The position numbers were made by a program, and so were the translations under genes. 64,000 bases of DNA from Schaalia hyovaginalis (lineage in GTDB: Bacteria; Actinomycetota; Actinomycetes; Actinomycetales; Actinomycetaceae). The stretch is from positions 1,054,001 through 1,118,000 of the forward strand of contig NZ_JACHMK010000001.1 of the NCBI RefSeq assembly GCF_014208035.1, read 5' to 3'. Positions within the stretch are counted from its first letter, which is position 1; each line of letters starts with the position of its first letter. The notes beneath the pieces are model-generated. The model saw nothing but the letters and a program-made list of their open reading frames with translations, did not search any database and was not told the DNA's origin. This document shows, piece after piece, positions 40,965 through 51,815 of the stretch.

Positions 40965-41702
40965 TCAGTGCTCCGAGGACGCCCTCGGGCACCTCGCTCC
41001 CGGTGGGAGGGGGGATGAATCGCCCTCGCTTCGGCGGGCACCGGCATCTGCTCCGATCCCGCAGCGCTGTGCGCGGATCGCGACTTCGGTCCGCGATGAG
41101 CAGCCGAGGTGCTTGAGGATCTGACTCACGTAGGTGCGGGCCGAGCCCTCGGATATGTTGAGCGACTTCGCGATTTCTCGATTCGACTTCGCCTGCGCGA
41201 GCTCGACGAGGACGGGGCGAAGCCGATCGGGTAAACGATCGAGGGCGGAGGCGAAGGCTGAATTGCCGTCGGTGGTCGAGGCGGGGACGAGGGAGGGCGG
41301 CGCATCGAGGGCGGGGGAGATGATGCGGGTTCCCGAATAGGCTGCGAGGAGGTTGGCGGCGAGGCTTTCGGGCGGGAGATCCTTGGAGAGGATGCCGTTC
41401 ACTCCGACCGCAAGCGCTCTGGAGCACAGATCCGGGAGGGCGAATGCCGTGTAGAGGACGACGACGACCCCGGGTGCGAGTTCGCGCAGCCGCTCGGCGG
41501 TGGAGATCCCGTCGAGGACGGGCATGCGGACGTCGAGAAGGGCGATGTCGGGCTGGAGGTCTTGGGCGATATCGAGGGCGGCCGCACCGTCGCCGACCGC
41601 TGCGATGATGTCGAGGCCCGAGTGGCGGCCGAGCAGGTCGATGAGTCTGGCGCGCAGTTCGGCGTCGTCCTCTGCGATGAGGAGGGTGAGCGGCGCGGTC
41701 AT
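40965..41702 (-). CDS. Response regulator, NarL/LuxR family
   Basis: 245-aa DNA-binding output protein of the two-component system encoded upstream. Receiver domain: acidic pair in TLLIAEDDAELR, phosphoacceptor Asp in LLDVRMPVLDGI, and a Lys in ILSKDLPPESL. The C-terminal LuxR-type helix-turn-helix reads LVELAQAKSNREIAKSLNIS and SARTYVSQILKHLGCSSRTE, followed by a ~30-residue tail. The ATG overlaps the kinase stop by 4 nt. It is the obvious candidate to bind the repeated TTGAC-N4-GTCAA-like element in the nearby promoters. Confidence 0.92.
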   Translation of the reverse strand: MTAPLTLLIAEDDAELRARLIDLLGRHSGLDIIAAVGDGAAALDIAQDLQPDIALLDVRMPVLDGISTAERLRELAPGVVVVLYTAFALPDLCSRALAVGVNGILSKDLPPESLAANLLAAYSGTRIISPALDAPPSLVPASTTDGNSAFASALDRLPDRLRPVLVELAQAKSNREIAKSLNISEGSARTYVSQILKHLGCSSRTEVAIRAQRCGIGADAGARRSEGDSSPLPPGARCPRASSEH

Positions 41703-42844
41703 CGTTCCTCCTCGTCTTCGCTTCGAGCGAGCGGGATCCGTGCGGACAGGACCCAGCGATCTGCGATGACGTGGGTTTCGAGTCGCGCTCCGAGAACGGC
41801 TGCTTGGCGGGCGAGGCCGGGCAGGCCGAGTCCACTCGAGGCCTCGGTCGTGGCACTCGCTCCGACTTCGTTGATGAGGGTGAGTTCGAGGCCCGCCCGG
41901 CTTGGCAGGTCGATGCTTTCAATGATGAGCGAGGCGGTGGAGTCCTTCGGCGCGTGCTTGAAGACGTTGACGCACCCCTCCCGGACGAGGGTGAGCAGGA
42001 GCGTTCGTCTCTCAACGTCGAGTCGGTTTTCGAGGTCGCCCTCGACGTCGGCGTCGAGGGCGATGCCGTGAGAGGCGAGCATTCGCTCGCTGTCGCGCAG
42101 GAGGCCGCTCAGGGTATCGGGGGCGGGGGAGGGGGCGGGCGAGGCGTCGATGACGAAGCGGAGGTCGGTCATCGCGGCTCGTGTGGCGTCGAGCGCGGCC
42201 CTGAGCTGAAGGGAGAGGCGAGGGTCGCTCGTGGTGGCGAGCGCCTCTTCCTGTGCGGCGATCGCTCGAACGAGGTGCGCTGCGGCGGTGTCGTGGAGGA
42301 TCTGGGCCGTCGACTGTCGGGCCTCGGCGAGCAGCGCGTGCGAGCGTTCCTTCTCGAGGGCGAGCGCGGTATCGGCGGTGCGCAGGCGCGCGGTGAATCG
42401 TCTGCCGCTGACTGCGATGAGGACGCTGAGAAAGGCCCCGATGGCGAGTTCGAGGAGGCCTGCGCGAAGGTAGGGGCCCGGGAGGTGGATCGCCCCGTAG
42501 GTGGCGAGGGCGAGTGCGGCGGTGATGTACCAGCCCTTGTAGATCCACAGTGCGGCGACGGCGTAGACGCCGAGGGCGCTCAAGCCGATCGATGCGAGCT
42601 CGTGGGGTGCGGCCAGACCGGCGAAGAGCAGGATGAGGAATGAGGCGCTTGAGAGCCGAGGGAATCGTCCGGCGAACCCCAATGCCACGCACATCATCGC
42701 GAGGAATGCAGTCGATGCGGCGGTCGTGGGCGGATAGAAGAACACGTCGGCCAGGAAGAGGAGGACTGCCAGCGCGGGGAAGGGAAAAGCGCGGAGGAAG
42801 CGACTCGGCTCCACCTGGTGGGTGCCGTGAAGGGATCGGCTCAT
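41699..42844 (-). CDS. Sensor histidine kinase, NarL-system (HisKA_3) type
   Basis: 381-aa membrane kinase. Five or so hydrophobic segments fill residues 15-140 (FPALAVLLFLADVFF, AALWIYKGWYITAALALATY, GLLELAIGAFLSVLIAVS), with no large extracellular domain, so it should sense something at or in the membrane, such as a small peptide. The dimerisation/phosphoacceptor helix has His in STAQILHDTAAAHLVRA, a variant of the usual ELHD box. The ATPase domain has the N-box VREGCVNVFKHA and G-box SSGLGLPGLARQ. The ATG overlaps the stop of a 50-codon gene encoding a secreted peptide (42841-42993), and it is coupled to the response regulator. Confidence 0.9.
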   Translation of the reverse strand: MSRSLHGTHQVEPSRFLRAFPFPALAVLLFLADVFFYPPTTAASTAFLAMMCVALGFAGRFPRLSSASFLILLFAGLAAPHELASIGLSALGVYAVAALWIYKGWYITAALALATYGAIHLPGPYLRAGLLELAIGAFLSVLIAVSGRRFTARLRTADTALALEKERSHALLAEARQSTAQILHDTAAAHLVRAIAAQEEALATTSDPRLSLQLRAALDATRAAMTDLRFVIDASPAPSPAPDTLSGLLRDSERMLASHGIALDADVEGDLENRLDVERRTLLLTLVREGCVNVFKHAPKDSTASLIIESIDLPSRAGLELTLINEVGASATTEASSGLGLPGLARQAAVLGARLETHVIADRWVLSARIPLARSEDEEER

Positions 42845-42993
42845 CGGCAGTCGGGGAGCCAGGGGAAGAGTGCGCAGATCAGAGGATTACCATCCCTCAG
42901 TTGAACGGAGGCGAGGTCCGGTGCCGGAGTGATCGCATATGCGGGCGCAGGCGTCGACAAGAAGATGAGCGAAGCGACAAGAATCGAATGCAC
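42841..42993 (-). CDS. Short secreted peptide precursor with two cysteines, candidate signal peptide pheromone
   Basis: 50 codons from GTG 42993, with GGGAGG 5 nt upstream. The product begins MHSILVASLIFLSTPAPAYA, a good signal peptide with an AYA cleavage site, leaving ~30 residues that end LICALFPWLPDCR with two cysteines nine residues apart (positions 40 and 49), able to form a 10-residue loop. Its stop overlaps the histidine kinase start (ATGA) and the strong ribosome binding site argues that it is translated. A small secreted peptide encoded directly before a membrane kinase with only short loops is the classic layout of a peptide quorum-sensing system. No maturation enzyme is adjacent. 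The pheromone role is inferred. Confidence 0.7.
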   Translation of the reverse strand: MHSILVASLIFLSTPAPAYAITPAPDLASVQLRDGNPLICALFPWLPDCR

Positions 42994-43118
42994 TGTGCCT
43001 CCCGGTGCCGTGATGGATCATGCGCGCGGACCGGCTTCGCCGATCGTGCCTCCTGCTTCGGCAGCATAGAGGGCCGTCGGCCGATACGGAGCGTGGTCGG
43101 CTTCGATCAACGCAAGTG

Positions 43119-43173
43119 TTGACATTCTGCGATAGCGCTCGGCCTGTTGTCGGTGTCGCCGTCTTCCTAGACT
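43119..43173 (+). promoter_or_regulatory. Shared regulated promoter, copy 1 (secreted peptide gene)
   Basis: TTGACATTCTGCGATAG starts at 43119 and the -10 TAGACT is at 43168-43173: 49 bp from the first base of the element to the -10. Same spacing and related sequence as the promoters at 44977, 46062 and 48897. The -35 region (CTGTTG, 18 bp before the -10) is poor, so an activator is expected. On the opposite strand the same region lies upstream of the peptide-kinase operon and holds TCAAC-N6-GTTGA (43107-43122). Confidence 0.7.
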
Positions 43174-43221
43174 GGGCGTGCGGGCATGAGGATGCTCGGC
43201 GGTGAAGGAAAGGATGAGACG

Positions 43222-43536
43222 ATGAGGTCTCGAATGACAGCACTCCTCGGTGTGTGTGCAGTGAGTATGGCGATCACAGGCGCGTCGATCGCGCCGGCGC
43301 AGGCGGTCGCCGGATGCTCAGTGGGGGTAAACGACAGTGGAACCGTATTCTGGTCGTACTGCAGCGCGGCATCCGGAGTGAGTAGCCACAATGCCAAGGC
43401 CCAGATCTACTTCAATTCGGGATATTCAGGTCCTCGATTCTCGAAGAACCAGGCCCCAGGGGTCTACTCGTACAGCCCTGACTACTCGGGTGTCGGGTAT
43501 GTGATGGAGGGACCGTGGATTCAGGTCACCTACTGA
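43222..43536 (+). CDS. Small secreted protein, lactococcin 972-like bacteriocin candidate
   Basis: 104 aa. ATG 43222 has AAAGG 8 nt upstream. Signal peptide SRMTALLGVCAVSMAITGAS...APAQA, then a ~76-residue mature protein rich in Gly, Ser and Tyr, with two early cysteines (AGCSVG; SYCSAA) and the end VMEGPWIQVTY. The SSHNAKAQIYF stretch followed by NQAPGVYSYS resembles the THSATVV ... QRAGVWAKA pattern of lactococcin 972, a Sec-secreted bacteriocin whose operon carries an ABC transporter; an ABC exporter operon occurs here at 49001. Its stop overlaps the lipoprotein gene (TGATG). The C-terminal end is found again as stubs before other lipoprotein genes. Family assignment is tentative. Confidence 0.6.
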   Translation: MRSRMTALLGVCAVSMAITGASIAPAQAVAGCSVGVNDSGTVFWSYCSAASGVSSHNAKAQIYFNSGYSGPRFSKNQAPGVYSYSPDYSGVGYVMEGPWIQVTY

Positions 43537-44153
43537 TGACGTGGCGCCGTCTGAGCCTGTTCGCGCTCGGCCTCGCCCTCGCTGCGTGTTCCGCGCAGAC
43601 GGGCGCGGCCGAGCCGTACAAGCTGGAGTTAGATGATCTGATCGCACGCTCGGAAGGGGTTGAGCCGGCGGCTTCTATCCTGAAAGATCGTGTGATCACT
43701 GAAGCGGAGATCGCAGAGGTTGACAAGGCGTTTATCTCGTGCGTTGAGAATGCAGGGTTTCCTGGTGCGATCGTCGAAGATCTTGCTGGGAATGTCGGAA
43801 TCCCAATGCCGGCGGATGGAAGCGATTCTTCCGCTGCATTCGCCGACTGCTCGGAATCGACATTTTTTAGTGGAATTCACGGCGTCTTCTGGGGGATGCG
43901 GACGAATCCGAAGAATCTGTCGCAGGGGGAGGCGACGCTCGAATGCCTCAAGCGATTCCAACTCATCGATCCGGGACTCACGGCCGACGAGTTCATGCGT
44001 GAAGAGGAGGAATGGATCGCGAGTGCTCCGAGAGTCGATGGAGTCATCCATGGTGATCCCGGCCAAGCGCATTCGTACAGCGATCAGGCGGAGGGTGAGC
44101 GGATGCACACCGAGTGCATGATCGACCCCTCCATCACCCCGAATACCGAATGA
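43536..44153 (+). CDS. Four-cysteine lipoprotein 1 of the tandem array
   Basis: 205 aa, unknown family. Lipobox LAAC (cysteine at about residue 18). The mature part has the core EPAASILKDRVITEAEIAEV then FISCVENAGFPG, and four cysteines in the contexts SCVENAG, DCSEST, ECLKRF and ECMIDPS, which are shared by lipoproteins 2, 3, 4 and 6. The ATG overlaps the stop of the secreted peptide gene by one base, so peptide and lipoprotein are coupled, suggesting an immunity or accessory role for the lipoprotein. An exact copy lies at 47038-47655. A TTA leucine codon and mixed third positions set it apart from the GC-rich flanks. Confidence 0.75.
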   Translation: MTWRRLSLFALGLALAACSAQTGAAEPYKLELDDLIARSEGVEPAASILKDRVITEAEIAEVDKAFISCVENAGFPGAIVEDLAGNVGIPMPADGSDSSAAFADCSESTFFSGIHGVFWGMRTNPKNLSQGEATLECLKRFQLIDPGLTADEFMREEEEWIASAPRVDGVIHGDPGQAHSYSDQAEGERMHTECMIDPSITPNTE

Positions 44154-44189
44154 CTCGGCGACGGCCCGTGGGTGAAAGTTCAGTACTGA
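44154..44189 (+). pseudogene. C-terminal stub of a secreted peptide gene (stub 1)
   Basis: Directly after the stop of lipoprotein 1 the same frame reads LGDGPWVKVQY and stop, matching the end EGPWIQVTY of the 43222-43536 peptide. The stop overlaps the ATG of lipoprotein 2 as TGATG, exactly as at 43534-43538. It is a fossil showing that lipoprotein 2 once had its own peptide gene. Confidence 0.65.
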
Positions 44190-44860
44190 TGCGTGGGAGT
44201 GGCGCCTCGCGGGCTGCTTCTCGTGCCTTAGTGCTTCTTGGTATCGCCCTGGTTTCGCTCGCCGGCTGTACGGCTCGCGAGGCGTCCACTCCCGAAGAGC
44301 GGTATCGCCCGGAGTTCGAAGAACTCATCGCGAAGGTCGGTGATGACGAGCCGGCGGCAAGCATCCTTGAGGACTATCGGCTTGACGAAGTTGAGATCGA
44401 GCAATTGCACGACGCATATGTTTCGTGCGTGGCCGATCAGGGATTCCCCGGTCTCTATTTCGATTCGATCACCGGTTCCACTGGATTCTCCAGGGGGATC
44501 GCAGATGACCGATTCAATGACGCGAGAAAGGCGATGGATGACTGCGATACCTCGACTCATTCGAGTGATGTGACCTATCTTTATGCTCAGCTCATCCAGA
44601 ATCCTGAGAAGGAAGATCCGAATCAGGTTGTGATCGATTGCATGGTGCGTCGAGGGGTTTTGGATCAGTCGTATACGGTTGAGCGTTTTGAAAAGGAACT
44701 CGAGGCGTGGATCGCGCAGCCCCATACGATGAAGGGGGAGCAGATCATCGGGAGCCCTGGTGAGGCATTCACGTATCTGGGGGATCGGGAGGAGGGGATC
44801 CGGGTGTTCATGGAATGCTCCTATGACCCGACGAGCGGGGACACCAGTGAGAGCGGATGA
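44189..44860 (+). CDS. Four-cysteine lipoprotein 2 of the tandem array
   Basis: 223 aa from ATG 44189; signal MRGSGASRAASRALVLLGIA and lipobox LAGC. An upstream ATG (44150, overlapping the previous stop) is in frame, but 44189 keeps the TGATG junction seen for lipoproteins 1, 3 and 4. The core DEPAASILEDYRLDEVEIEQ and VSCVADQGFPG are homologous to lipoprotein 1 and all four cysteines are kept (SCVADQ, DCDTST, DCMVRR, ECSYDP). Function unknown; a partly deleted copy is at 47691-48170. Confidence 0.72.
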   Translation: MRGSGASRAASRALVLLGIALVSLAGCTAREASTPEERYRPEFEELIAKVGDDEPAASILEDYRLDEVEIEQLHDAYVSCVADQGFPGLYFDSITGSTGFSRGIADDRFNDARKAMDDCDTSTHSSDVTYLYAQLIQNPEKEDPNQVVIDCMVRRGVLDQSYTVERFEKELEAWIAQPHTMKGEQIIGSPGEAFTYLGDREEGIRVFMECSYDPTSGDTSESG

Positions 44861-44976
44861 TGGGAAGCGCGAGTCTGATGTCGTGACGGGACGAGCTCTC
44901 GCGTGAGCTTTTGGTCCTTGCCTCGTCGGGGAATAGTCGGGGCCTCCAGTGCCGTTCGGGTGAGCTGCGAGAAATA

Positions 44977-45031
44977 TTGAATTTTGTCAATATTGATAGC
45001 CCTGTGCAACGACGCTTCGTTCCTCTAAAAT
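44977..45031 (+). promoter_or_regulatory. Shared regulated promoter, copy 2 (SdpC-like gene)
   Basis: TTGAATTTTGTCAATA starts at 44977; -10 TAAAAT at 45026-45031, again 49 bp apart. The second half GTCAAT is identical to that of copies 3 and 4. The remainder of 44861-45084 holds no gene that I can support. Confidence 0.7.
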
Positions 45032-45084
45032 GGGCTCTGTGGAAGTAAGGAGGCTTTCACATGGCGTAAAAGGGAAAGGCAATG

Positions 45085-45723
45085 ATGTCTCGGATGAAGG
45101 CATTATTCGTTGTGTGCGCTGTCACTATGACGATTTCGATCATGTCGGCGTGCCCTGTGTATGCAGTGCAGGAACTGCCTTCTGCTGGCGGATGCATATC
45201 GCCTATTGGTGCGCGCGCGAAGAGTTTTCGTGAAGATGCGATTTCGGCGCACTCTTCGATTTATTGTGATGGGGCTAGTCTGTCTTATTCCTTGTTCGAC
45301 TCCAAAGAGGATATTTCTACGGTGACGATGGAGAAGATGGCTTTGCTTCAACAGAGTGATGCATTGATGTCCTTGTTCATAGGAGCTTCGGATCAAGACA
45401 TCGTCGATGCGTATCTCATTTTCTTTGCTGAGCATTCGACTCGAGCTGACGTTGAGCGGTTTGTTGAATCGACTCAAGGGAAGCATTTTGTCATTCAGGG
45501 AACCGTTAACTCTCCTTCGATCAGCCTTGAGGAAGGTAGGCTGTATCAGGATCGTGATGTTCCAACCTGTTGGCGGGGCTGGCTTGCAGCGTTTGCATAT
45601 TTCGCTGCACAGGGGATGACTTGCGGTCCGTTGCATCTTGCTGGAGGGGTTCCCGGATTCGTCTGCGATGGCGTATTCTTTGCGATTGGGCTGCTTCCGG
45701 ATTTCAATGCGTCGTGCAAGTGA
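45085..45723 (+). CDS. SdpC-like secreted antimicrobial peptide precursor
   Basis: 212 aa, clearly lower in GC than its surroundings. Signal peptide MSRMKALFVVCAVTMTISIM...CPVYA, strikingly like that of the 43222 peptide. A charged, helical pro-region follows (SFREDAISAHSS; ASDQDIVDAYLIFFAEHSTR), then a hydrophobic, cysteine-rich C-terminal ~55 residues (TCWRGWLAAFAYFAAQGMTC; GVPGFVCDGVFFAIGLLPDF). This layout - Sec signal, soluble pro-domain, hydrophobic toxin peptide near the C-terminus - is that of the Bacillus cannibalism toxin precursor SdpC and its relatives. ATG 45085 is preferred over 45082 by spacing to AAAGG. A small membrane protein follows at once. No SdpA/B processing genes are seen. 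Confidence 0.55.
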   Translation: MSRMKALFVVCAVTMTISIMSACPVYAVQELPSAGGCISPIGARAKSFREDAISAHSSIYCDGASLSYSLFDSKEDISTVTMEKMALLQQSDALMSLFIGASDQDIVDAYLIFFAEHSTRADVERFVESTQGKHFVIQGTVNSPSISLEEGRLYQDRDVPTCWRGWLAAFAYFAAQGMTCGPLHLAGGVPGFVCDGVFFAIGLLPDFNASCK

Positions 45724-45732
45724 GGTGAGGAG

Positions 45733-45927
45733 ATGCTTCGAGCATTCATCAAAGGCGTTTTCATCGGTGCCGTGTGGTGCGCCTGTGTCGCTTTCATGGT
45801 CTGGCTCGTCTCCGGAAGGATTGACATGTTCAATCTCTTCTTCTTCGGGATCGGGCTTCTGCTTTCACATGGAGTCTGGATGATGCTGTATGCGCGCAGT
45901 TCCGAAGGGAATCCGAAAGAAAAGTGA
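45733..45927 (+). CDS. Small two-helix membrane protein, candidate immunity factor
   Basis: 64 aa: two hydrophobic helices (FIKGVFIGAVWCACVAFMVW and LFFFGIGLLLSHGVWMMLYA) and a charged tail. GTGAGGAG lies just before the ATG. It starts 9 nt after the SdpC-like gene, the position of a dedicated immunity protein, though it is smaller than SdpI. Role inferred from context. From 45928 to 46056 I see no gene. Confidence 0.55.
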   Translation: MLRAFIKGVFIGAVWCACVAFMVWLVSGRIDMFNLFFFGIGLLLSHGVWMMLYARSSEGNPKEK

Positions 45928-46056
45928 CATTCTCGTAGGAAGTCGAGACGCGGCTCGGTGTGGACGGCAGCTTCCTCGGAGGCTTGACATCAACCTTTGA
46001 AACAGATGATGGATCTTCGCTGAGAACGAACGACAAGCCGAGGCCGTCGGAGACTC

Positions 46057-46197
46057 GAGTGTTGACGAATGTCAATGCCGAAAGCCGTGTGCGAGGCTCC
46101 TCCATCCATCTAACGTGGGTCCTGTGGAAGCGACGAGGCGTCCACGGGTGGTGAAGGAGAAGACGATGACGACGATCCCGCTGCGCCCCCTCGCGAT
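46057..46197 (+). repeat. 141-bp direct repeat of the exporter promoter and gene start (copy A)
   Basis: 46057-46197 equals 48892-49032 (offset 2,835) with one mismatch (gcgaCgagg here, gcgaTgagg there). It carries the regulated promoter, the leader, the ribosome binding site and the first 10-11 codons of the exporter adaptor gene, here joined to the tail of a secreted peptide gene. Confidence 0.9.
46062..46116 (+). promoter_or_regulatory. Shared regulated promoter, copy 3
   Basis: TTGACGAATGTCAATG starts at 46062 (perfect TTGAC-GAAT-GTCAA inverted repeat); -10 TAACGT at 46111-46116, 49 bp from the start of the element. Drives the chimeric peptide frame and lipoprotein 3. Confidence 0.7.
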
Positions 46198-46366
46198 TGC
46201 TCCTGTTGTCCTCGAACGCCCATCCTCGCCACACTCGAGGGTGAACTCGGGGCATGCGACGATGAATCACTCGACGGTGCAGCGCGCCGGAGTCGCTTCG
46301 AGCACTCGCAACGACTCGGGCGTCGGACGAGTGATCGATGGACCGTGGATCCAGGTCAGGTATTGA
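46166..46366 (+). pseudogene. Chimeric peptide gene: exporter gene start fused to secreted-peptide tail
   Basis: 66 codons. The first ten (MTTIPLRPLA) come from the duplicated start of the 49001 gene; the last ~30 (VQRAGVASSTRNDSGVGRVI then DGPWIQVRY) are homologous to the end of the 43222 peptide. The original signal peptide is missing, so the product should not be secreted by Sec; probably a broken gene, though it is still translated in a position that couples to lipoprotein 3 (TGATG). Confidence 0.65.
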
Positions 46367-46986
46367 TGGCACGGAGACTGATCGGGTTGTCCGCCCTTCT
46401 CCTCACCCTGTCGGCCTGCTCGGCCCAGACGGGGGGAGCGGCGGAGGCCTACAAAGCCGAACTCGATGACCTCGTCGCGCGTTCGGCGGGTATCGAGCCG
46501 GCGGCTTCTATCCTGAAAGATCGTGTGATCACTGAAGCGGAGATCGCAGAGGTTGACAAGGCGTTTATCTCGTGCGTTGAGAATGCAGGGTTTCCTGGTG
46601 CGACCGTTGACGACCTCGCTGGGAATGTCGGAATCCCAATGCCGGCGGATGGAAGCGATTCTTCCGCTGCATTCGCCGACTGCTCGCAGTCGACGCTCTT
46701 CACTGATATCCACAATGTTTTTTGGGCGATGAGGACGAATCCCGAGCATCTCACCCAGGATGAAGCGATCCTCGCCTGCCTCAAGCGCTTCGACGTCATC
46801 GATCCGAATTACACTGTCGAGCAGTTCAGCCGTGAGGAGGACGCATGGATGGAGTCGGCGCCGACGATCGACGGCGTCATTCAAGGCGGCCCGAACGAGG
46901 CGCACACCTACACCGACCGGGCCAAGGGGCTCGAGCTGTTCCGCGAATGCGAAAGCGACCCCTCGATCACTCCGGATGATGAGTGA
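46366..46986 (+). CDS. Four-cysteine lipoprotein 3 of the tandem array
   Basis: 206 aa; lipobox LSAC (MARRLIGLSALLLTLSAC). Same family as lipoprotein 1. Two internal tracts are identical in DNA to lipoprotein 1 (46495-46603 = 43662-43770; 46618-46686 = 43785-43853), while the 14 bp between them and the gene ends differ, so the gene is a mosaic formed by recombination or gene conversion. All four cysteines present (SCVENA, DCSQST, ACLKRF, ECESDP). The ends are richer in GC codons than lipoprotein 1. Confidence 0.75.
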   Translation: MARRLIGLSALLLTLSACSAQTGGAAEAYKAELDDLVARSAGIEPAASILKDRVITEAEIAEVDKAFISCVENAGFPGATVDDLAGNVGIPMPADGSDSSAAFADCSQSTLFTDIHNVFWAMRTNPEHLTQDEAILACLKRFDVIDPNYTVEQFSREEDAWMESAPTIDGVIQGGPNEAHTYTDRAKGLELFRECESDPSITPDDE

Positions 46987-47003
46987 ATGCAAGGTGGCGA
47001 GAA

Positions 47004-47038
47004 TGATGGAGGGACCGTGGATTCAGGTCACCTACTGA
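47004..47038 (+). pseudogene. C-terminal stub of a secreted peptide gene (stub 2)
   Basis: In the frame ending at the TGA 47036-47038 the sequence reads MEGPWIQVTY, identical to the end of the 43222 peptide, and the stop overlaps the ATG of lipoprotein 4 (TGATG). It marks the left end of the large duplication (43502 = 47004). Confidence 0.7.
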
Positions 47039-47655
47039 TGACGTGGCGCCGTCTGAGCCTGTTCGCGCTCGGCCTCGCCCTCGCTGCGTGTTCCGCGCAG
47101 ACGGGCGCGGCCGAGCCGTACAAGCTGGAGTTAGATGATCTGATCGCACGCTCGGAAGGGGTTGAGCCGGCGGCTTCTATCCTGAAAGATCGTGTGATCA
47201 CTGAAGCGGAGATCGCAGAGGTTGACAAGGCGTTTATCTCGTGCGTTGAGAATGCAGGGTTTCCTGGTGCGATCGTCGAAGATCTTGCTGGGAATGTCGG
47301 AATCCCAATGCCGGCGGATGGAAGCGATTCTTCCGCTGCATTCGCCGACTGCTCGGAATCGACATTTTTTAGTGGAATTCACGGCGTCTTCTGGGGGATG
47401 CGGACGAATCCGAAGAATCTGTCGCAGGGGGAGGCGACGCTCGAATGCCTCAAGCGATTCCAACTCATCGATCCGGGACTCACGGCCGACGAGTTCATGC
47501 GTGAAGAGGAGGAATGGATCGCGAGTGCTCCGAGAGTCGATGGAGTCATCCATGGTGATCCCGGCCAAGCGCATTCGTACAGCGATCAGGCGGAGGGTGA
47601 GCGGATGCACACCGAGTGCATGATCGACCCCTCCATCACCCCGAATACCGAATGA
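47038..47655 (+). CDS. Four-cysteine lipoprotein 4, exact copy of lipoprotein 1
   Basis: 205 aa, identical in protein and, as far as I can read, in DNA to 43536-44153. Lipobox LAAC, four cysteines. Two identical expressed copies in 3.5 kb imply a recent tandem duplication; dosage may matter. Preceded by a peptide-gene stub instead of a full peptide gene. Confidence 0.78.
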   Translation: MTWRRLSLFALGLALAACSAQTGAAEPYKLELDDLIARSEGVEPAASILKDRVITEAEIAEVDKAFISCVENAGFPGAIVEDLAGNVGIPMPADGSDSSAAFADCSESTFFSGIHGVFWGMRTNPKNLSQGEATLECLKRFQLIDPGLTADEFMREEEEWIASAPRVDGVIHGDPGQAHSYSDQAEGERMHTECMIDPSITPNTE

Positions 47656-47691
47656 CTCGGCGACGGCCCGTGGGTGAAAGTTCAGTACTGA
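47656..47691 (+). pseudogene. C-terminal stub of a secreted peptide gene (stub 1 copy)
   Basis: Copy of 44154-44189: LGDGPWVKVQY then a stop overlapping the ATG of lipoprotein 5. Confidence 0.6.
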
Positions 47692-48170
47692 TGCGTGGGA
47701 GTGGCGCCTCGCGGGCTGCTTCTCGTGCCTTAGTGCTTCTTGGTATCGCCCTGGTTTCGCTCGCCGGCTGTACGGCTCGCGAGGCGTCCACTCCCGAAGA
47801 GCGGTATCGCCCGGAGTTCGAAGAACTCATCGCGAAGGTCGGTGATGACGAGCCGGCGGCAAGCATCCTTGAGGACTATCGGCTTGACGAAGTTGAGATC
47901 GAGCAATTGCACGACGCATATGTTTCGTGCGTGGCCGATCAGGGATTCCCCGGTCTCTATTTCGATTCGATCACCGGTTCCACTGGATTCTCCAGGGGGA
48001 TCGCAGATGACCGATTCAATGACGCGAGAAAGGCGATGGATGACGGGGAGCAGATCATCGGGAGCCCTGGTGAGGCATTCACGTATCTGGGGGATCGGGA
48101 GGAGGGGATCCGGGTGTTCATGGAATGCTCCTATGACCCGACGAGCGGGGACACCAGTGAGAGCGGGTAA
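47691..48170 (+). CDS. Truncated copy of lipoprotein 2 (64 codons deleted in frame)
   Basis: 159 aa. Identical to lipoprotein 2 except for an in-frame deletion between ...KAMDD and GEQIIGSPG: 192 bp (44543-44734 in the parent), which removes cysteines 2 and 3 of the four. Signal peptide and lipobox LAGC are intact, so a shortened lipoprotein could still be made; likely non-functional if the missing pair is structural. It runs into lipoprotein 6, whose GTG start lies inside its last codons. Confidence 0.65.
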   Translation: MRGSGASRAASRALVLLGIALVSLAGCTAREASTPEERYRPEFEELIAKVGDDEPAASILEDYRLDEVEIEQLHDAYVSCVADQGFPGLYFDSITGSTGFSRGIADDRFNDARKAMDDGEQIIGSPGEAFTYLGDREEGIRVFMECSYDPTSGDTSESG

Positions 48171-48795
48171 AGGCGGGGCCGCGATCGCCGCCGTGACCCC
48201 GCTCCTCCTCACACTCGCAGGCTGCACGTCCAGCAGCCAAACGGGAGCGCTGGAAGGTCCCGGATACTCCGACGCCTTTGCGGACATACGCGAAACGACG
48301 GAATCGGACTTCCTCCGAGAGGTACTCGATGACGACCTCATCACCGAGGCGGAGCTCGCCGAGGCGAGGAAGCGCTTCATCACCTGTGTCAACGAATCGG
48401 GGCGCCTCAGCGCTGCGAGTCTGGACGACGGCGGCTGGGAGTTCTCGGGCCCCGCGATGAATACCGAGGAATACCGCACGATCACTCACGCTTGCGAGGA
48501 AGTCGCCGGAGCGGGAACGCTCACGATGTACGCCCAGATGATGCGCGACAATCCGACGAACATCGATCCCTATTCGCTCATGGCACTGTGCCTGGTGAAG
48601 AAGGGCGCCGTCGACCCGTCGTACTCGGGCGACCAGTACGGGCGCGACCTCGAACGGTACTTCACGCTGCCCGAATCGGAACGCCAAGGAGATCCTGAAA
48701 GGATGATCGCCTTCCACGATGAGGAGGCGGGGGCGGCCGCGTACCGGGAATGCGAGTCGCTGACGGCCGTGCAGATCCAGGCCCTTCCTGGATGA
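48157..48795 (+). CDS. Divergent four-cysteine lipoprotein 6
   Basis: 212 aa from GTG 48157 (ATG 48133 is an in-frame alternative with an RR-containing n-region). Lipobox LAGC (AAVTPLLLTLAGC). GC-rich codon use, unlike lipoproteins 1-5. Distant member of the array family: DDDLITEAELAEARKRFITC, and cysteines in TCVNES, ACEEVA, LCLVKK and ECESLT in the same order. No peptide stub precedes it; the 5' end overlaps the truncated lipoprotein 5. Function unknown. Confidence 0.68.
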   Translation: MRAGKGGAAIAAVTPLLLTLAGCTSSSQTGALEGPGYSDAFADIRETTESDFLREVLDDDLITEAELAEARKRFITCVNESGRLSAASLDDGGWEFSGPAMNTEEYRTITHACEEVAGAGTLTMYAQMMRDNPTNIDPYSLMALCLVKKGAVDPSYSGDQYGRDLERYFTLPESERQGDPERMIAFHDEEAGAAAYRECESLTAVQIQALPG

Positions 48796-48891
48796 CCGCT
48801 CCTGCCTGAGCGAGGACTGGCCGGATGGAGAGGCGACTGGCCGGCATGGGCAGGTGTAAGATGAATTCCGGAGTTCATGATGACCAACGAG

Positions 48892-49032
48892 GAGTGTTGA
48901 CGAATGTCAATGCCGAAAGCCGTGTGCGAGGCTCCTCCATCCATCTAACGTGGGTCCTGTGGAAGCGATGAGGCGTCCACGGGTGGTGAAGGAGAAGACG
49001 ATGACGACGATCCCGCTGCGCCCCCTCGCGAT
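48892..49032 (+). repeat. 141-bp direct repeat (copy B), at the start of the exporter operon
   Basis: Parent or sister copy of 46057-46197; one mismatch. This copy is in its natural context, reading through into the intact adaptor gene at 49001. Confidence 0.9.
48897..48951 (+). promoter_or_regulatory. Shared regulated promoter, copy 4 (exporter operon)
   Basis: TTGACGAATGTCAATG from 48897 and -10 TAACGT at 48946-48951, spacing 49 bp as in the other three copies. Confidence 0.7.
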
Positions 49033-50035
49033 CGGCGCCTTCGCCTGTCTCCTGTGCGCCGCAGGGGGCGGGGCCCTCGGCGCCCTCGTCCTCGCCCCGC
49101 CCGTCCCCGCCTCACTCGACGCCCCTCCCGCACTCGACTCCGCCCCCGTCGAAACCCGCGTCATCGATGATGCGCGGACGATCCCCCTCTCCTTCATCAC
49201 GGGCGAGACGACGAGCATCTCCGCCCCGATCCAAGGGAAAGTCACCGCCCTCGCCGTCAACCTCGCAGGCCCCCTCGAATCCGGGCACGAGATCGCGCGC
49301 ATCGATGGACGCCCCCTCATCGCCCTCGCCACCTCAACCCCCCTGTACCGGCCCCTCACGAACGGACTGAAGGGCGACGACGTCACCGCCCTGCAAGAAG
49401 AACTTGCCCGCCTCGGCTACACCCTCTCCGTCACCGGAACCGTCGACTGGAACACCCAATGGGCGCTCGCCGACCTCCTCGGCATCGAGGACGGCACCGG
49501 CGGCGTACCCGCCGAGATTCCGAGCGAGAGCGTCGTCTGGATCCCGGCCCCCTCGGTCACCGTCGCCTCCCTCGACATCGCCCTCGGACAATCCCTCGAT
49601 CCGGCCGAACCCATGCTCTCCGTCACCGACTCCTCCGAGCGCGGCGTCCTCACCCTCCCCGAAGAGGCGATCGCAGGGGACCGCGTCCTCACCCTGTCCA
49701 CGGGCGCGCTCCCCGTGCCCGCAGACGGCGTCATCACCGACCCCGCGACCCTGAAGGCGATCAAGGACTCCGACCAGTACAGAGCCTTCTCCACGGCCCT
49801 CGGGGACGGCGAAGGCGTCTTCACCGTCCCCTGGTCGCTCGCCACCCCGATCAGCGCACTCGTCGTCCCGCCCTCGTCCCTGTTCGGAATCGTCGGCGCC
49901 GACGCCTGCATCGCCCAGAACGGTGACATCCACAGGGTGCAGATCATCGGCTCGCAGCTCGGACAGTCCTACATCACCTCCGACGATCCCCTCACCGCGG
50001 TCGACCTCCACACCGAGGGGCTCACATGCCGGTGA
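49001..50035 (+). CDS. HlyD-like exporter adaptor with peptidoglycan-binding-like domain
   Basis: 344 aa. One N-terminal membrane helix (LAIGAFACLLCAAGGGALGA), then an extracytoplasmic part with a barrel-sandwich segment (TSISAPIQGKVTALAVNLAG, PLESGHEIARIDGRPLIAL), a putative PG_binding_1 repeat (LKGDDVTALQEELARLGYTL), and a C-terminal beta domain (EPMLSVTDSSERGVLTLPEE). This is the pattern of adaptors encoded with MacB-like ABC exporters in Gram-positive bacteriocin loci. GAAGGAGA precedes ATG 49001. Overlaps the ATPase gene by 10 nt. It presumably links the permease to the cell wall for export or for immunity. Confidence 0.75.
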   Translation: MTTIPLRPLAIGAFACLLCAAGGGALGALVLAPPVPASLDAPPALDSAPVETRVIDDARTIPLSFITGETTSISAPIQGKVTALAVNLAGPLESGHEIARIDGRPLIALATSTPLYRPLTNGLKGDDVTALQEELARLGYTLSVTGTVDWNTQWALADLLGIEDGTGGVPAEIPSESVVWIPAPSVTVASLDIALGQSLDPAEPMLSVTDSSERGVLTLPEEAIAGDRVLTLSTGALPVPADGVITDPATLKAIKDSDQYRAFSTALGDGEGVFTVPWSLATPISALVVPPSSLFGIVGADACIAQNGDIHRVQIIGSQLGQSYITSDDPLTAVDLHTEGLTCR

Positions 50036-50688
50036 GCCTGCGCACCCTCGGCCACCGCTTCGGCGACGGGCCCTGGCTCTTCCGCGGCCTCACGGAGACG
50101 ATCGGAGAAGGAGAAGTGGTCGCCCTCGTCGGCCCCTCCGGCTCGGGCAAGTCGACCCTCCTGTCGATGATCGCCGGATGGGCGGCCCCCGCCGAGGGGA
50201 GCATCGACCTCACCGCGCCAGCGGGGGACGAGGGCGGGACCGGCGCCCGACCCGGCGGAGCGCGGATCGCCTGGGTCTTCCAGAACCCCCACGGCGTACC
50301 CGGCCGGAGCGTCCTCGATCACGTCGCCCTGCCCCTCCTCGCGCGCGGAGCCGCGCCCTCGGACGCGGACGAGCGGGCCCGGCGCCTCCTCGCCGACTTC
50401 CATCTCGACCGCGTCGCAGACCGCCCCTTCAAAACGCTGTCCGGCGGTGAAGCGCAACGCATGCTCCTCGCGCGCGCACTCGCCACCGAAGCGGACGTCC
50501 TCCTCGTCGATGAGCCGACCGCACAGCTCGACCAGCGCACCGCCGCCCACGTCGCGGACACGCTCACCGCCCTTCACGACCGCGGGCTCGTCGTCCTCAT
50601 CGCCACCCACGACCCCCACGTGCGCGACCGCTGCACTCGCGTCATCGACCTCGCCGCCTACACCCCCGAAGACGAGGCCGAGCGATGA
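50026..50688 (+). CDS. ABC transporter ATP-binding protein (MacB/LolD-like)
   Basis: 220-aa ATPase. Walker A VGPSGSGKSTLLSMIAG (about residue 36), Q-loop VFQNPHG, signature LSGGEAQRMLLARALA, Walker B VLLVDEPTAQLD, switch His in IATHDPHV. Belongs to the export/immunity ABC class found beside FtsX-like permeases. Overlaps both neighbours (10 nt and 4 nt), so the three genes form one operon under promoter copy 4. Confidence 0.92.
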   Translation: MPVSLRTLGHRFGDGPWLFRGLTETIGEGEVVALVGPSGSGKSTLLSMIAGWAAPAEGSIDLTAPAGDEGGTGARPGGARIAWVFQNPHGVPGRSVLDHVALPLLARGAAPSDADERARRLLADFHLDRVADRPFKTLSGGEAQRMLLARALATEADVLLVDEPTAQLDQRTAAHVADTLTALHDRGLVVLIATHDPHVRDRCTRVIDLAAYTPEDEAER

Positions 50689-51815
50689 GGCCCCGAAGCG
50701 CCCGAGTGCGCGCCCGGAGCGGGCGACGGGCCCGCATGAGCATCGGGGCGCTCGCGCGCGAAACCTGGCGGGACATGACGAGCGGCACCGCCTGGATCGG
50801 CATATGGACGATCCTCGCCGCCCTCCTCCTCGGCGGAGGGATCAGCCTCGACGTGCAGGTCATCGCCCGAGAAGCCAGGGCCGCAGCGGACTACCAAGCC
50901 TCCCTCGCCTCCGTTCGCGTCGTCGAATCGAACCAGGCGATCGACGGGGCGACATGCCGGGCGCTCGCCGAGCTCGACGGAGTGAAGGGGGCGATCGCGA
51001 TCCGAAAGGCGCCAGAGGCGCTGAGCCCCGCCGCCATACCCTCCGCATCCCTGCAGACCTGGGAGTACACCGGTGGCATCGAGGGCGTCTTCGACATGAC
51101 CTCCCACGACCCGGCGGCTTCCGGCATCATCCTCGCCGAGCAGGTCGCGAGCGCCCTCGGTATCGCCGCCGACGACGAGGCCGCCCTGAAATCCGGAGCG
51201 TCGACACCGGTGAAGGGGGTGTACGCCTGGGATGAGAACGACGGGCGCCGCACCGGCTACGCGTACTCGGCGCTCGTGCCCGTGCCCGCCCGGGGGCGCT
51301 TCGACGCCTGCTGGGTGAGGCTCTGGCCGCTCAACCCCGCCGTCGACTCTCTCATGCGGCTCGCCGTCATCCCCGGCGACGAGCACCAGCAGGTCGACAC
51401 CTACTCGGTGAACGCCTCCCTCGGCGCCGCCTTCGACGGGCCCGGGCGCTACGCCGGGAGGATCACCGCCCCGATCGCGTGGATCCTCTTCGCGCTCGGG
51501 CTCGGCATCGGTGCGCTCTCGGTGCGCAGGCGCCGCCTCGAACTGGCCTCCGACCTGCACGCCGGGGTGTCCAGAACGGACCTCGTCGCCAAGGTGGAAC
51601 TCCATACGGCCGTCATCGCCCTCTTCGCCGCGATCCTGAGCGTCCCCGTCCTGACGGGGATGATCCTCCGCGTTCCCGAGGCTGACCGACCGGCCCTGTG
51701 GGCGCACGCCGGCCTGCTCGGCCTCGTCGGCGCATCAGGCCTGCTCCTGGGCGCCCTCCTCGTCGCTCTGGCGCTCCGGGAGAAGAAGCTCTTCGACTAC
51801 TTCAAGACGCGGTAG
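50685..51815 (+). CDS. ABC transporter permease (FtsX/MacB-like)
   Basis: 376 aa. One N-terminal transmembrane segment (IGIWTILAALLLGGGISLDV), a ~200-residue extracytoplasmic domain, and three C-terminal segments (APIAWILFALGLGIGALSV, TAVIALFAAILSVPVLTGMI, GLVGASGLLLGALLVALALR): the MacB/FtsX topology. The ATG overlaps the ATPase stop; an internal ATG at 50736 (MSIGALARETW) would drop a basic N-terminal stretch and could be the real start. Likely exports, or protects from, the antimicrobial peptides encoded upstream; cargo is not proven. From 51816 to 51974 nothing is seen. Confidence 0.85.
   Translation: MRPRSARVRARSGRRARMSIGALARETWRDMTSGTAWIGIWTILAALLLGGGISLDVQVIAREARAAADYQASLASVRVVESNQAIDGATCRALAELDGVKGAIAIRKAPEALSPAAIPSASLQTWEYTGGIEGVFDMTSHDPAASGIILAEQVASALGIAADDEAALKSGASTPVKGVYAWDENDGRRTGYAYSALVPVPARGRFDACWVRLWPLNPAVDSLMRLAVIPGDEHQQVDTYSVNASLGAAFDGPGRYAGRITAPIAWILFALGLGIGALSVRRRRLELASDLHAGVSRTDLVAKVELHTAVIALFAAILSVPVLTGMILRVPEADRPALWAHAGLLGLVGASGLLLGALLVALALREKKLFDYFKTR

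What the first reader, a model, noticed from the sequence alone, without database searches (positions are those of the whole stretch)
42841..51815. Peptide-linked two-component system next to a co-regulated antimicrobial/immunity island
Seen: on one strand, a 50-codon secreted-peptide gene, a membrane histidine kinase and a LuxR-type regulator overlap in one operon. On the other strand lie a secreted lactococcin-972-like peptide, six lipoproteins of one family, an SdpC-like toxin precursor with a two-helix membrane partner, and an ABC exporter with adaptor. Four promoters in this block share one element at fixed spacing. Known: peptide pheromones next to kinases control bacteriocin loci in streptococci and lactobacilli. 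Inference: this is a comparable self-sensing toxin/immunity/export regulon in an actinobacterium, with new small components. I do not know a described system with this exact set.
Basis: partly seen in the sequence, partly recalled or inferred. Interest (0 to 1): 0.88.

Follow-up and report, generated by a model that had tools for sequence, protein, structure and literature searches.

The report
Ring-peptide kinase switch beside bacteriocin island
In this actinobacterium a tiny secreted-type peptide with a two-cysteine ring motif is encoded directly ahead of a sensor kinase and its gene regulator, beside toxin-like genes that share a promoter element; the same peptide-kinase pairing recurs in relatives, so it looks like an undescribed family of bacterial peptide signals.

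Summary
A 50-codon secreted-peptide gene, a membrane histidine kinase and a LuxR-type regulator overlap in one operon. Opposite lie a bacteriocin-like protein, six lipoprotein ORFs, a toxin-like precursor with a two-helix partner, and an ABC exporter. Four promoters carry a TTGAC-N4-GTCAA-type element 49 bp before a TANNNT -10; two of the four are 99% identical copies.

The peptide-kinase pair is a family. Of 25 related kinase places in 35 genus genomes, 18 have a CX8C peptide directly upstream, 16 with CxxxPxxPxC (CALFPWLPDC here). All 17 peptide-profile hits at E <= 0.001 sit beside a kinase. The motif recurs in another genus and another family. Control: 1 of 475 non-kinase genes. Element and spacing are conserved in two syntenic species.

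Most likely: a Sec-exported ring pheromone activates its kinase and switches on a toxin/immunity/export island. Secretion, ring closure, binding and activation are inferred. Three genus kinases have no peptide, and most peptide genes lack a strong element match. 'Lactococcin-972-like' fails the profiles, though a relative has a true lactococcin 972 in that operon position; 'SdpC-like' has no profile support. No paper on this peptide family was found. New variant of a known kind.

The parts
42841..42993 (-). pep50: 50-codon peptide precursor; signal-peptide-like start ending AYA (by eye), C-terminal ring motif CALFPWLPDC (CxxxPxxPxC)
41699..42844 (-). membrane histidine kinase, 4 hydrophobic segments by a simple scan (2-5 in the 13 aligned kinases); 4-nt overlap with pep50; no Pfam match of its own, relatives match HisKA_3
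40965..41702 (-). NarL/LuxR-type response regulator (Response_reg + GerE); 4-nt overlap with kinase
43114..43134 (.). divergent-promoter block AAGTGTTGACATTCTGCGATA between pep50 and the bacteriocin-like gene, the same in 3 species except for one C/T position
43222..43536 (+). secreted-type bacteriocin-like protein (104 aa) in the operon position that lactococcin 972 has in G010; no profile match
43536..44153 (+). four-Cys lipoprotein LP1 (candidate immunity)
44114..44860 (+). four-Cys lipoprotein LP2
44977..44990 (+). element TTGAATTTTGTCAA, TAAAAT at +49
45082..45723 (+). toxin-like precursor (213 aa) with cysteine-bounded hydrophobic C-terminus; relatives in 2 other genomes of the family
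45733..45927 (+). 64-aa two-helix membrane partner
46062..46075 (+). element TTGACGAATGTCAA in front of a chimeric remnant (46166-46366) and LP3, TAACGT at +49; part of a 141-bp duplicate
46366..46986 (+). four-Cys lipoprotein LP3
47038..47655 (+). lipoprotein identical to LP1 (duplicate)
47616..48170 (+). internally deleted duplicate of LP2
48157..48795 (+). four-Cys lipoprotein LP6 (49-50% identical to the first lipoprotein of the two syntenic loci)
48897..48910 (+). element TTGACGAATGTCAA before the exporter operon; 9/10 matches at the same place, with the same 49-nt spacing, in G004 and G029
49001..50035 (+). adaptor with PG_binding_1 domain (over cut-off); HlyD_3 only below cut-off
50026..50688 (+). 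ABC transporter ATPase
50736..51815 (+). ABC transporter permease (359 aa; by position and conservation beside the ATPase, no profile match)

Best explanation
pep50 is the precursor of a self-made signal. It is exported by Sec, cleaved after AYA to about 30 residues and closed by a disulfide into a ten-residue ring (CALFPWLPDC). The membrane part of the adjacent kinase senses it and the kinase phosphorylates the LuxR-type regulator. The regulator binds the TTGAC-N4-GTCAA element, centred about 54 bp before the presumed start site, and switches on the bacteriocin-like protein with its lipoproteins, the toxin-like precursor with its two-helix partner, and the adaptor/ABC exporter. Through the shared divergent element it probably also affects its own operon. 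Shown here: the genes, their overlap, the conserved ring motif and kinase linkage, the conserved element and spacing, and several further loci with secreted-type proteins or ABC exporters beside the pair. Inferred: secretion, disulfide, binding to the kinase, activation, and that the element is this regulator's site.
For: 18 of 25 kinase places in 35 genus genomes have a CX8C peptide directly upstream (read by eye, one of them, L122, is under the hydrophobicity limit of the automatic rule). A six-frame search of the 35 genomes with the peptide profile gave 17 places at E <= 0.001, all beside a kinase; 14 are the rows that built the profile, 3 are not (G003, the second peptide of G004, and G013:C52, whose 66 residues equal the G014 row). 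CxxxPxxPxC also before kinases of another genus (L092) and another family (L168). Control 1 of 475. Kinase tree: the CX8C label needs 7 changes, shuffled mean 16.4, 0 of 500 as low. Element and 49-nt spacing kept before the adaptor gene in G004 and G029, and the divergent block kept in both. Element at 9/10 or better before the peptide gene in 4 of 25 loci, expected 0.12, maximum 2 in 500 simulated sets. Secreted-type proteins or ABC transporters beside several other peptide-kinase loci.
Against: 3 of 25 genus kinases have no peptide; the one beside a true lactococcin 972 operon (L045) has a secreted-type peptide without the ring. 21 of 25 peptide genes lack a 9/10 element match, and at 8/10 the count (6 of 25, expected 1.69) was reached by the simulations. 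In the three peptide promoters checked (L036, L042, L044) no TANNNT stands at +35 to +61. In G029 the kinase is decayed but operon and element persist. More distant kinases seldom have such a peptide (5 of 30 below 120 bits). Several pairs (L036, L044, L049) have no relative of the window's cargo nearby. No expression, binding or activity data.
Confidence: 0.6

Rival explanations
1. The small protein is not a diffusible signal but a membrane-anchored or wall-side regulator that binds and restrains its own kinase (as MgrB does to PhoQ, recalled), with the cysteine pair needed for that contact.
For: Two C-terminal cysteines, one hydrophobic N-terminal segment, fixed place before the kinase.
Against: Several precursors carry A-x-A type cleavage sites after the hydrophobic segment (read by eye; no signal-peptide program was run); the ring sequence varies between kinase subfamilies, as expected of a private ligand.
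Confidence: 0.2
2. pep50 is itself an antimicrobial peptide sensed by the kinase, as autoinducing lantibiotics are (recalled).
For: Secreted-type and small, beside a toxin/immunity island.
Against: The peptide operon has no further gene that could be an immunity gene; the second peptide-kinase pair of the same genome (L049) has no relative of the window's cargo in its 20-kb stretch.
Confidence: 0.1
3. An envelope- or redox-stress system in which the secreted cysteine peptide is a co-sensor, like HbpS-SenS-SenR.
For: HbpS-SenS-SenR pairs a secreted protein with a kinase and regulator in actinobacteria (PMC4991794, passages); the cysteine pair could report redox state.
Against: [quoted passage not shown] here a tiny peptide keeps little but ring cysteines and prolines.
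Confidence: 0.08
4. The 50-codon ORF is a chance reading frame.
For: Small ORFs are common in high-GC DNA.
Against: CX8C peptides in the same position before 17 other kinase places of the genus; 1 of 475 control genes.
Confidence: 0.01

Closest known systems
Peptide-pheromone three-component systems of Firmicutes (ComCDE, BlpCHR, class II bacteriocin induction; recalled)
   Same: Small precursor gene beside kinase and regulator, next to bacteriocin-like, immunity-like and ABC export genes that share a promoter element.
   Different: No double-glycine leader in pep50 but a Sec-type start; relatives of the kinase match HisKA_3 and the regulator is NarL/LuxR-type, not HPK10 and LytTR (recalled); CX8C ring motif; in Actinomycetaceae-type genomes.
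Agr autoinducing peptides (recalled)
   Same: Cyclic peptide sensed by a polytopic kinase is the proposed logic.
   Different: No AgrB-like gene among the three genes of the operon; ring proposed to be a disulfide near the C-terminus of a Sec substrate.
HbpS-SenS-SenR of streptomycetes (PMC4991794, passages)
   Same: Secreted product encoded with a kinase and regulator in actinobacteria.
   Different: HbpS is an octameric haem/iron-binding redox sensor protein, not a ring peptide.
Lactococcin 972 loci (PF09683, TIGR01653)
   Same: Operon order secreted protein - lipoprotein - PG-binding adaptor - ABC ATPase - permease is that of G010 (L045), which carries a true lactococcin 972 (E 5.6e-17).
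   Different: The window protein and its two orthologues match neither profile and contain cysteines, which lactococcin 972 lacks (PMC8538875, passage).

Membership tests
Lactococcin 972 family | match to PF09683 / TIGR01653 | tested here: not met
   no match for window protein or its two orthologues; PF09683 found in 21 of 213 genomes of the family, not in G000, G004 or G029
Lactococcin 972 family | ABC transporter genes in the same operon | tested here: met
   adaptor, ATPase and permease downstream in window, G004, G029, as in G010 with a true lactococcin 972; the specific model TIGR03608 scores 128.9, under its cut-off 254.85
SdpC-type toxin | profile match | tested here: inconclusive
   no meaningful Pfam or NCBIfam match; not checked that an SdpC model is in these libraries
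Double-glycine peptide pheromone (ComC/BlpC type) | GG-type leader | tested here: not met
   no GG in pep50
HPK10 kinases (ComD/AgrC type) | HPK10-type kinase domain | tested here: inconclusive
   relatives L035 and L044 match HisKA_3, at and over the cut-off; the window kinase matches no Pfam family but keeps the group's LHD and REG-N-K motifs
Agr system | AgrB processing enzyme beside the peptide gene | tested here: not met
   none of the operon's three genes is one; the rest of the genome was not searched for AgrB
Two-component system, NarL/LuxR type | receiver plus GerE domain regulator beside a histidine kinase | tested here: met
   kinase by homology
Peptide quorum-sensing system | secreted peptide activates its cognate kinase from outside | not testable with these tools
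   needs supernatant and peptide-addition experiments

The most novel reading that the evidence does not exclude
A class of Sec-exported disulfide-ring peptide pheromones (CX8C, mostly CxxxPxxPxC), each private to its adjacent NarL-type kinase, runs through Actinomycetaceae and reaches another family of the class, and often controls narrow-spectrum toxins, their lipoprotein immunity factors and ABC exporters: a peptide quorum-sensing family of actinobacteria not yet described.
Probability: 0.45. Interest if true: 0.87.

Novelty: new variant of a known kind. Interest (0 to 1): 0.76.

Why it matters
If true, it gives actinobacteria a class of peptide signals that can be recognised by a short ring motif next to a kinase, with some twenty peptide-kinase pairs ready to test with synthetic peptides. 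It would also give a switch for toxin loci that may otherwise be silent, and a candidate immunity family: four-cysteine lipoproteins, found in 34 of 213 genomes of the family and, in 21 of 30 loci read, within 1.5 kb of a relative of the adaptor, ATPase or permease.

Tried and rejected
Chance ORF: rejected by conservation and control. A first control listed 10 hits in 573 genes, but 9 were copies of kinase genes; repeated without kinases it gave 1 of 475. The strict motif in the first 30 loci of the order-wide kinase search (L056-L085) was seen only in the window's own copy; the case in another genus (L092) is a second kinase of G062, fetched later. The genome-contig scan gave 6 loci, which add no new kind of locus. 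Kinases below 120 profile bits rarely have such peptides: 5 of 30. Of 75 distinct kinase places found by profile in the loci in hand, 12 were left out of the 63 counted (contig edge, match starting past profile position 70, or second piece of an interrupted frame); not every place listed was fetched. Tree labels were set by hand; four rows with weaker cysteine ORFs (L076, L078, L098, L101) were labelled 'none'. Genome-wide regulon by element: not claimed. The gene caller used for neighbourhoods missed the window's own bacteriocin-like gene and toxin-like precursor, so absence of small genes in its maps means little. PADLOC and PDB sequence searches gave nothing useful. No paper on these peptides was found (listings with starts of abstracts only; PMC8538875 and PMC4991794 seen as passages). 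Structure prediction never ran.
Full report
What is there. The window lies at 1054001-1118000 of contig 1 of a 2.65-Mb genome. On the minus strand pep50, a kinase and a LuxR-type regulator overlap by 4 nt each. pep50 begins with GTG 4 nt after GGGAGG, has a hydrophobic start ending AYA and a C-terminal ring motif CALFPWLPDC. On the plus strand lie the bacteriocin-like gene, lipoproteins, the toxin-like precursor with its two-helix partner, more lipoproteins, and adaptor, ATPase and permease. G+C is 51-62% between 43 and 49 kb against 67-73% on either side, so the cargo looks younger or foreign, while the exporter genes have the G+C of their flank.

The peptide-kinase pair is a family. A search of 35 genus genomes with the kinase gave 25 places in 13 genomes. 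Reading upstream of each: 18 have a secreted-type peptide with CX8C near its end, 16 of them CxxxPxxPxC (not L037 and L121). Of the other seven, one has a CX6C peptide (G024), one a secreted-type peptide without a ring (G010, L045), one is the second kinase of a tandem whose first kinase has the peptide (G011), one is a decayed kinase without the peptide (G029), and three of one clade (G002, G032 twice) have no peptide. In the alignment of 14 peptides only the start, the two cysteines and the two prolines are nearly invariant. A six-frame profile search of the 35 genomes gave 17 places at E <= 0.001; all lie directly upstream of a kinase (the G013 contig-52 case). Fourteen are the rows that built the profile, three are not. 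Two further kinase-linked peptides (G010:C1, G024) appear at E 0.006 and 0.014 among unrelated weak hits.

Controls and spread. With one automatic rule (hydrophobic N-terminus, C-x5-9-C near the C-terminus, stop within -160 to +40 of the gene start) 26 of 63 kinases in the loci in hand carry such an ORF: 12 of 13 in the group that built the kinase profile, 2 of 5 at 200-400 bits, 7 of 15 at 120-200, 2 of 15 at 90-120 and 3 of 15 below; against 1 of 475 non-kinase genes in the same loci. The kinases were gathered by kinase similarity, not by peptide. On a kinase tree of 62 rows the CX8C label needs 7 changes against 16.4 in shuffles, 0 of 500 as low; one branch of 32 rows (SH-aLRT 95, quick tree) holds all 19 CX8C rows, 4 rows with other cysteine loops and 9 without. 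Near-copies add to such clustering. Outside the genus CxxxPxxPxC occurs before a kinase of another genus of the family (L092, ACRWFPSLPQC) and of another family of the class (L168, ICRVYPRFPGC); other loop sizes occur elsewhere. The window's genome carries a second pair 8 kb beyond the window's end (L049).

The promoter element. All four window promoters have TANNNT starting 49 nt after the element start. Exact TTGAMNNNNGTCAA occurs at four places in the genome, three of them here; two of these three belong to a 141-bp duplication. Phylogenetic footprints: between pep50 and the bacteriocin-like gene the block AAGTGTTGACATTCTGYGATA is kept in three species, the longest unchanged run of that region; before the adaptor gene an element of 9/10 or better and the 49-nt spacing are kept in G004 and G029. 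Before other peptide genes a match of 9/10 or better was found in 4 of 25 loci (L036, L042, L044, L092), at -102 to -116 (expected 0.12, maximum 2 in 500 simulated sets); at 8/10 the count, 6 of 25, is not beyond the simulations. L044 has the exact palindrome TTGACATTCGTCAA. L036 and L042 are close relatives, and none of L036, L042 and L044 has TANNNT at +35 to +61. The element is thus shared by several kinase subfamilies, but not by most peptide genes.

The cargo. G004 keeps the order between the same flanking genes (bacteriocin-like gene, three lipoproteins, adaptor, ATPase, permease) without the toxin-like precursor; G029 keeps bacteriocin-like gene, one lipoprotein and exporter while kinase and regulator are decayed. 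In G010 a more distant kinase-regulator pair stands beside a true lactococcin 972 (E 5.6e-17) followed by lipoprotein, adaptor, ATPase, permease. The lipoprotein family occurs in 34 of 213 genomes of the family, and in 21 of 30 loci read a relative of adaptor, ATPase or permease lies within 1.5 kb, which makes an immunity role plausible by position. The toxin-like precursor is rare (3 of 213 genomes, the window's included).

Other peptide-kinase loci repeat the theme in part. L092 (another genus, strict ring peptide): a secreted-type PG-binding protein, a 269-aa protein, a PG-binding adaptor and an ABC ATPase directly after the regulator; relatives of the 269-aa protein lie within about 4 kb of a kinase of the window's own genus that has no peptide (L124). 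L091 and L038, of two genera, share a secreted-type precursor with a cysteine-bounded hydrophobic C-terminus beside the peptide-kinase operon (48-56% identity). L192 has a small ORF with an ABC transporter divergent from the peptide gene; L040 has an ABC ATPase and a long ORF, perhaps its permease, just upstream of the peptide gene. L191 (CX6C peptide) has lipoprotein, adaptor, ATPase and permease within about 11 kb. Against the theme: L036, L044 and L049 have no relative of the window's cargo in the stretches fetched, save an ABC match in L036 that belongs to what reads like a methionine importer.

Judgement. The gene-level linkage is strong; the chemistry and the signalling step are inferred. 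The system works like the peptide-induced bacteriocin switches of Firmicutes (recalled) but is not filed under those families: no double-glycine leader, no AgrB in the operon, a NarL/LuxR-type regulator and a kinase whose relatives match HisKA_3. The label lactococcin 972 is rejected for the window protein as a family call and kept as an analogy of operon position. No description of such peptides was found in ten searches of the paper library; the library lacks most subscription papers and holds no bioRxiv preprints, so this is weak evidence of novelty.

Noticed in passing
L049:9275-11275 (G000:C1, about 8 kb beyond the window's end): A second ring-peptide (FCQVFPNFPGC) plus kinase and regulator in the same genome; its kinase groups with those of L023 (G004), L121 (G010) and L122 (G003), all with CX8C peptides.
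   Followed up: partly
46166-46366: Chimeric remnant ORF: start of the adaptor gene fused to the end of the bacteriocin-like gene, preceded by a copy of the exporter promoter; looks like a recombination scar together with the lipoprotein duplications.
   Followed up: partly
43000-49000: G+C of 51-62% against 67-73% on both sides, so the cargo between regulator operon and exporter looks acquired.
   Followed up: partly
L016, L022, L124: Kinases without a peptide gene carry element variants (TTAACAAAAGTTAA, TTGACTTTTGTTAA) shortly before their start.
   Followed up: partly
L091:5662-6168 and L038:6717-7244: A secreted-type precursor with cysteine-bounded hydrophobic C-terminus next to ring-peptide kinases in two genera; no Pfam or NCBIfam family over cut-off.
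   Followed up: partly
L037:7513-8175 and L088:6340-6954: A shared 221-aa secreted-type protein (about 49% identity) near related kinases in two genera; the L088 kinase has transposase-like sequence instead of a peptide upstream.
   Followed up: no
L130:1181-1489 (G024): A further member of the bacteriocin-like family directly before a lipoprotein gene, without an exporter relative within 1.5 kb.
   Followed up: no
L047:9308-9959 (G069): Relative of the toxin-like precursor followed, by eye, by a two-helix partner in another genus, so the pair may travel together.
   Followed up: partly
G000:C1:894659-895132: A distant four-Cys lipoprotein relative elsewhere in the window's genome.
   Followed up: no
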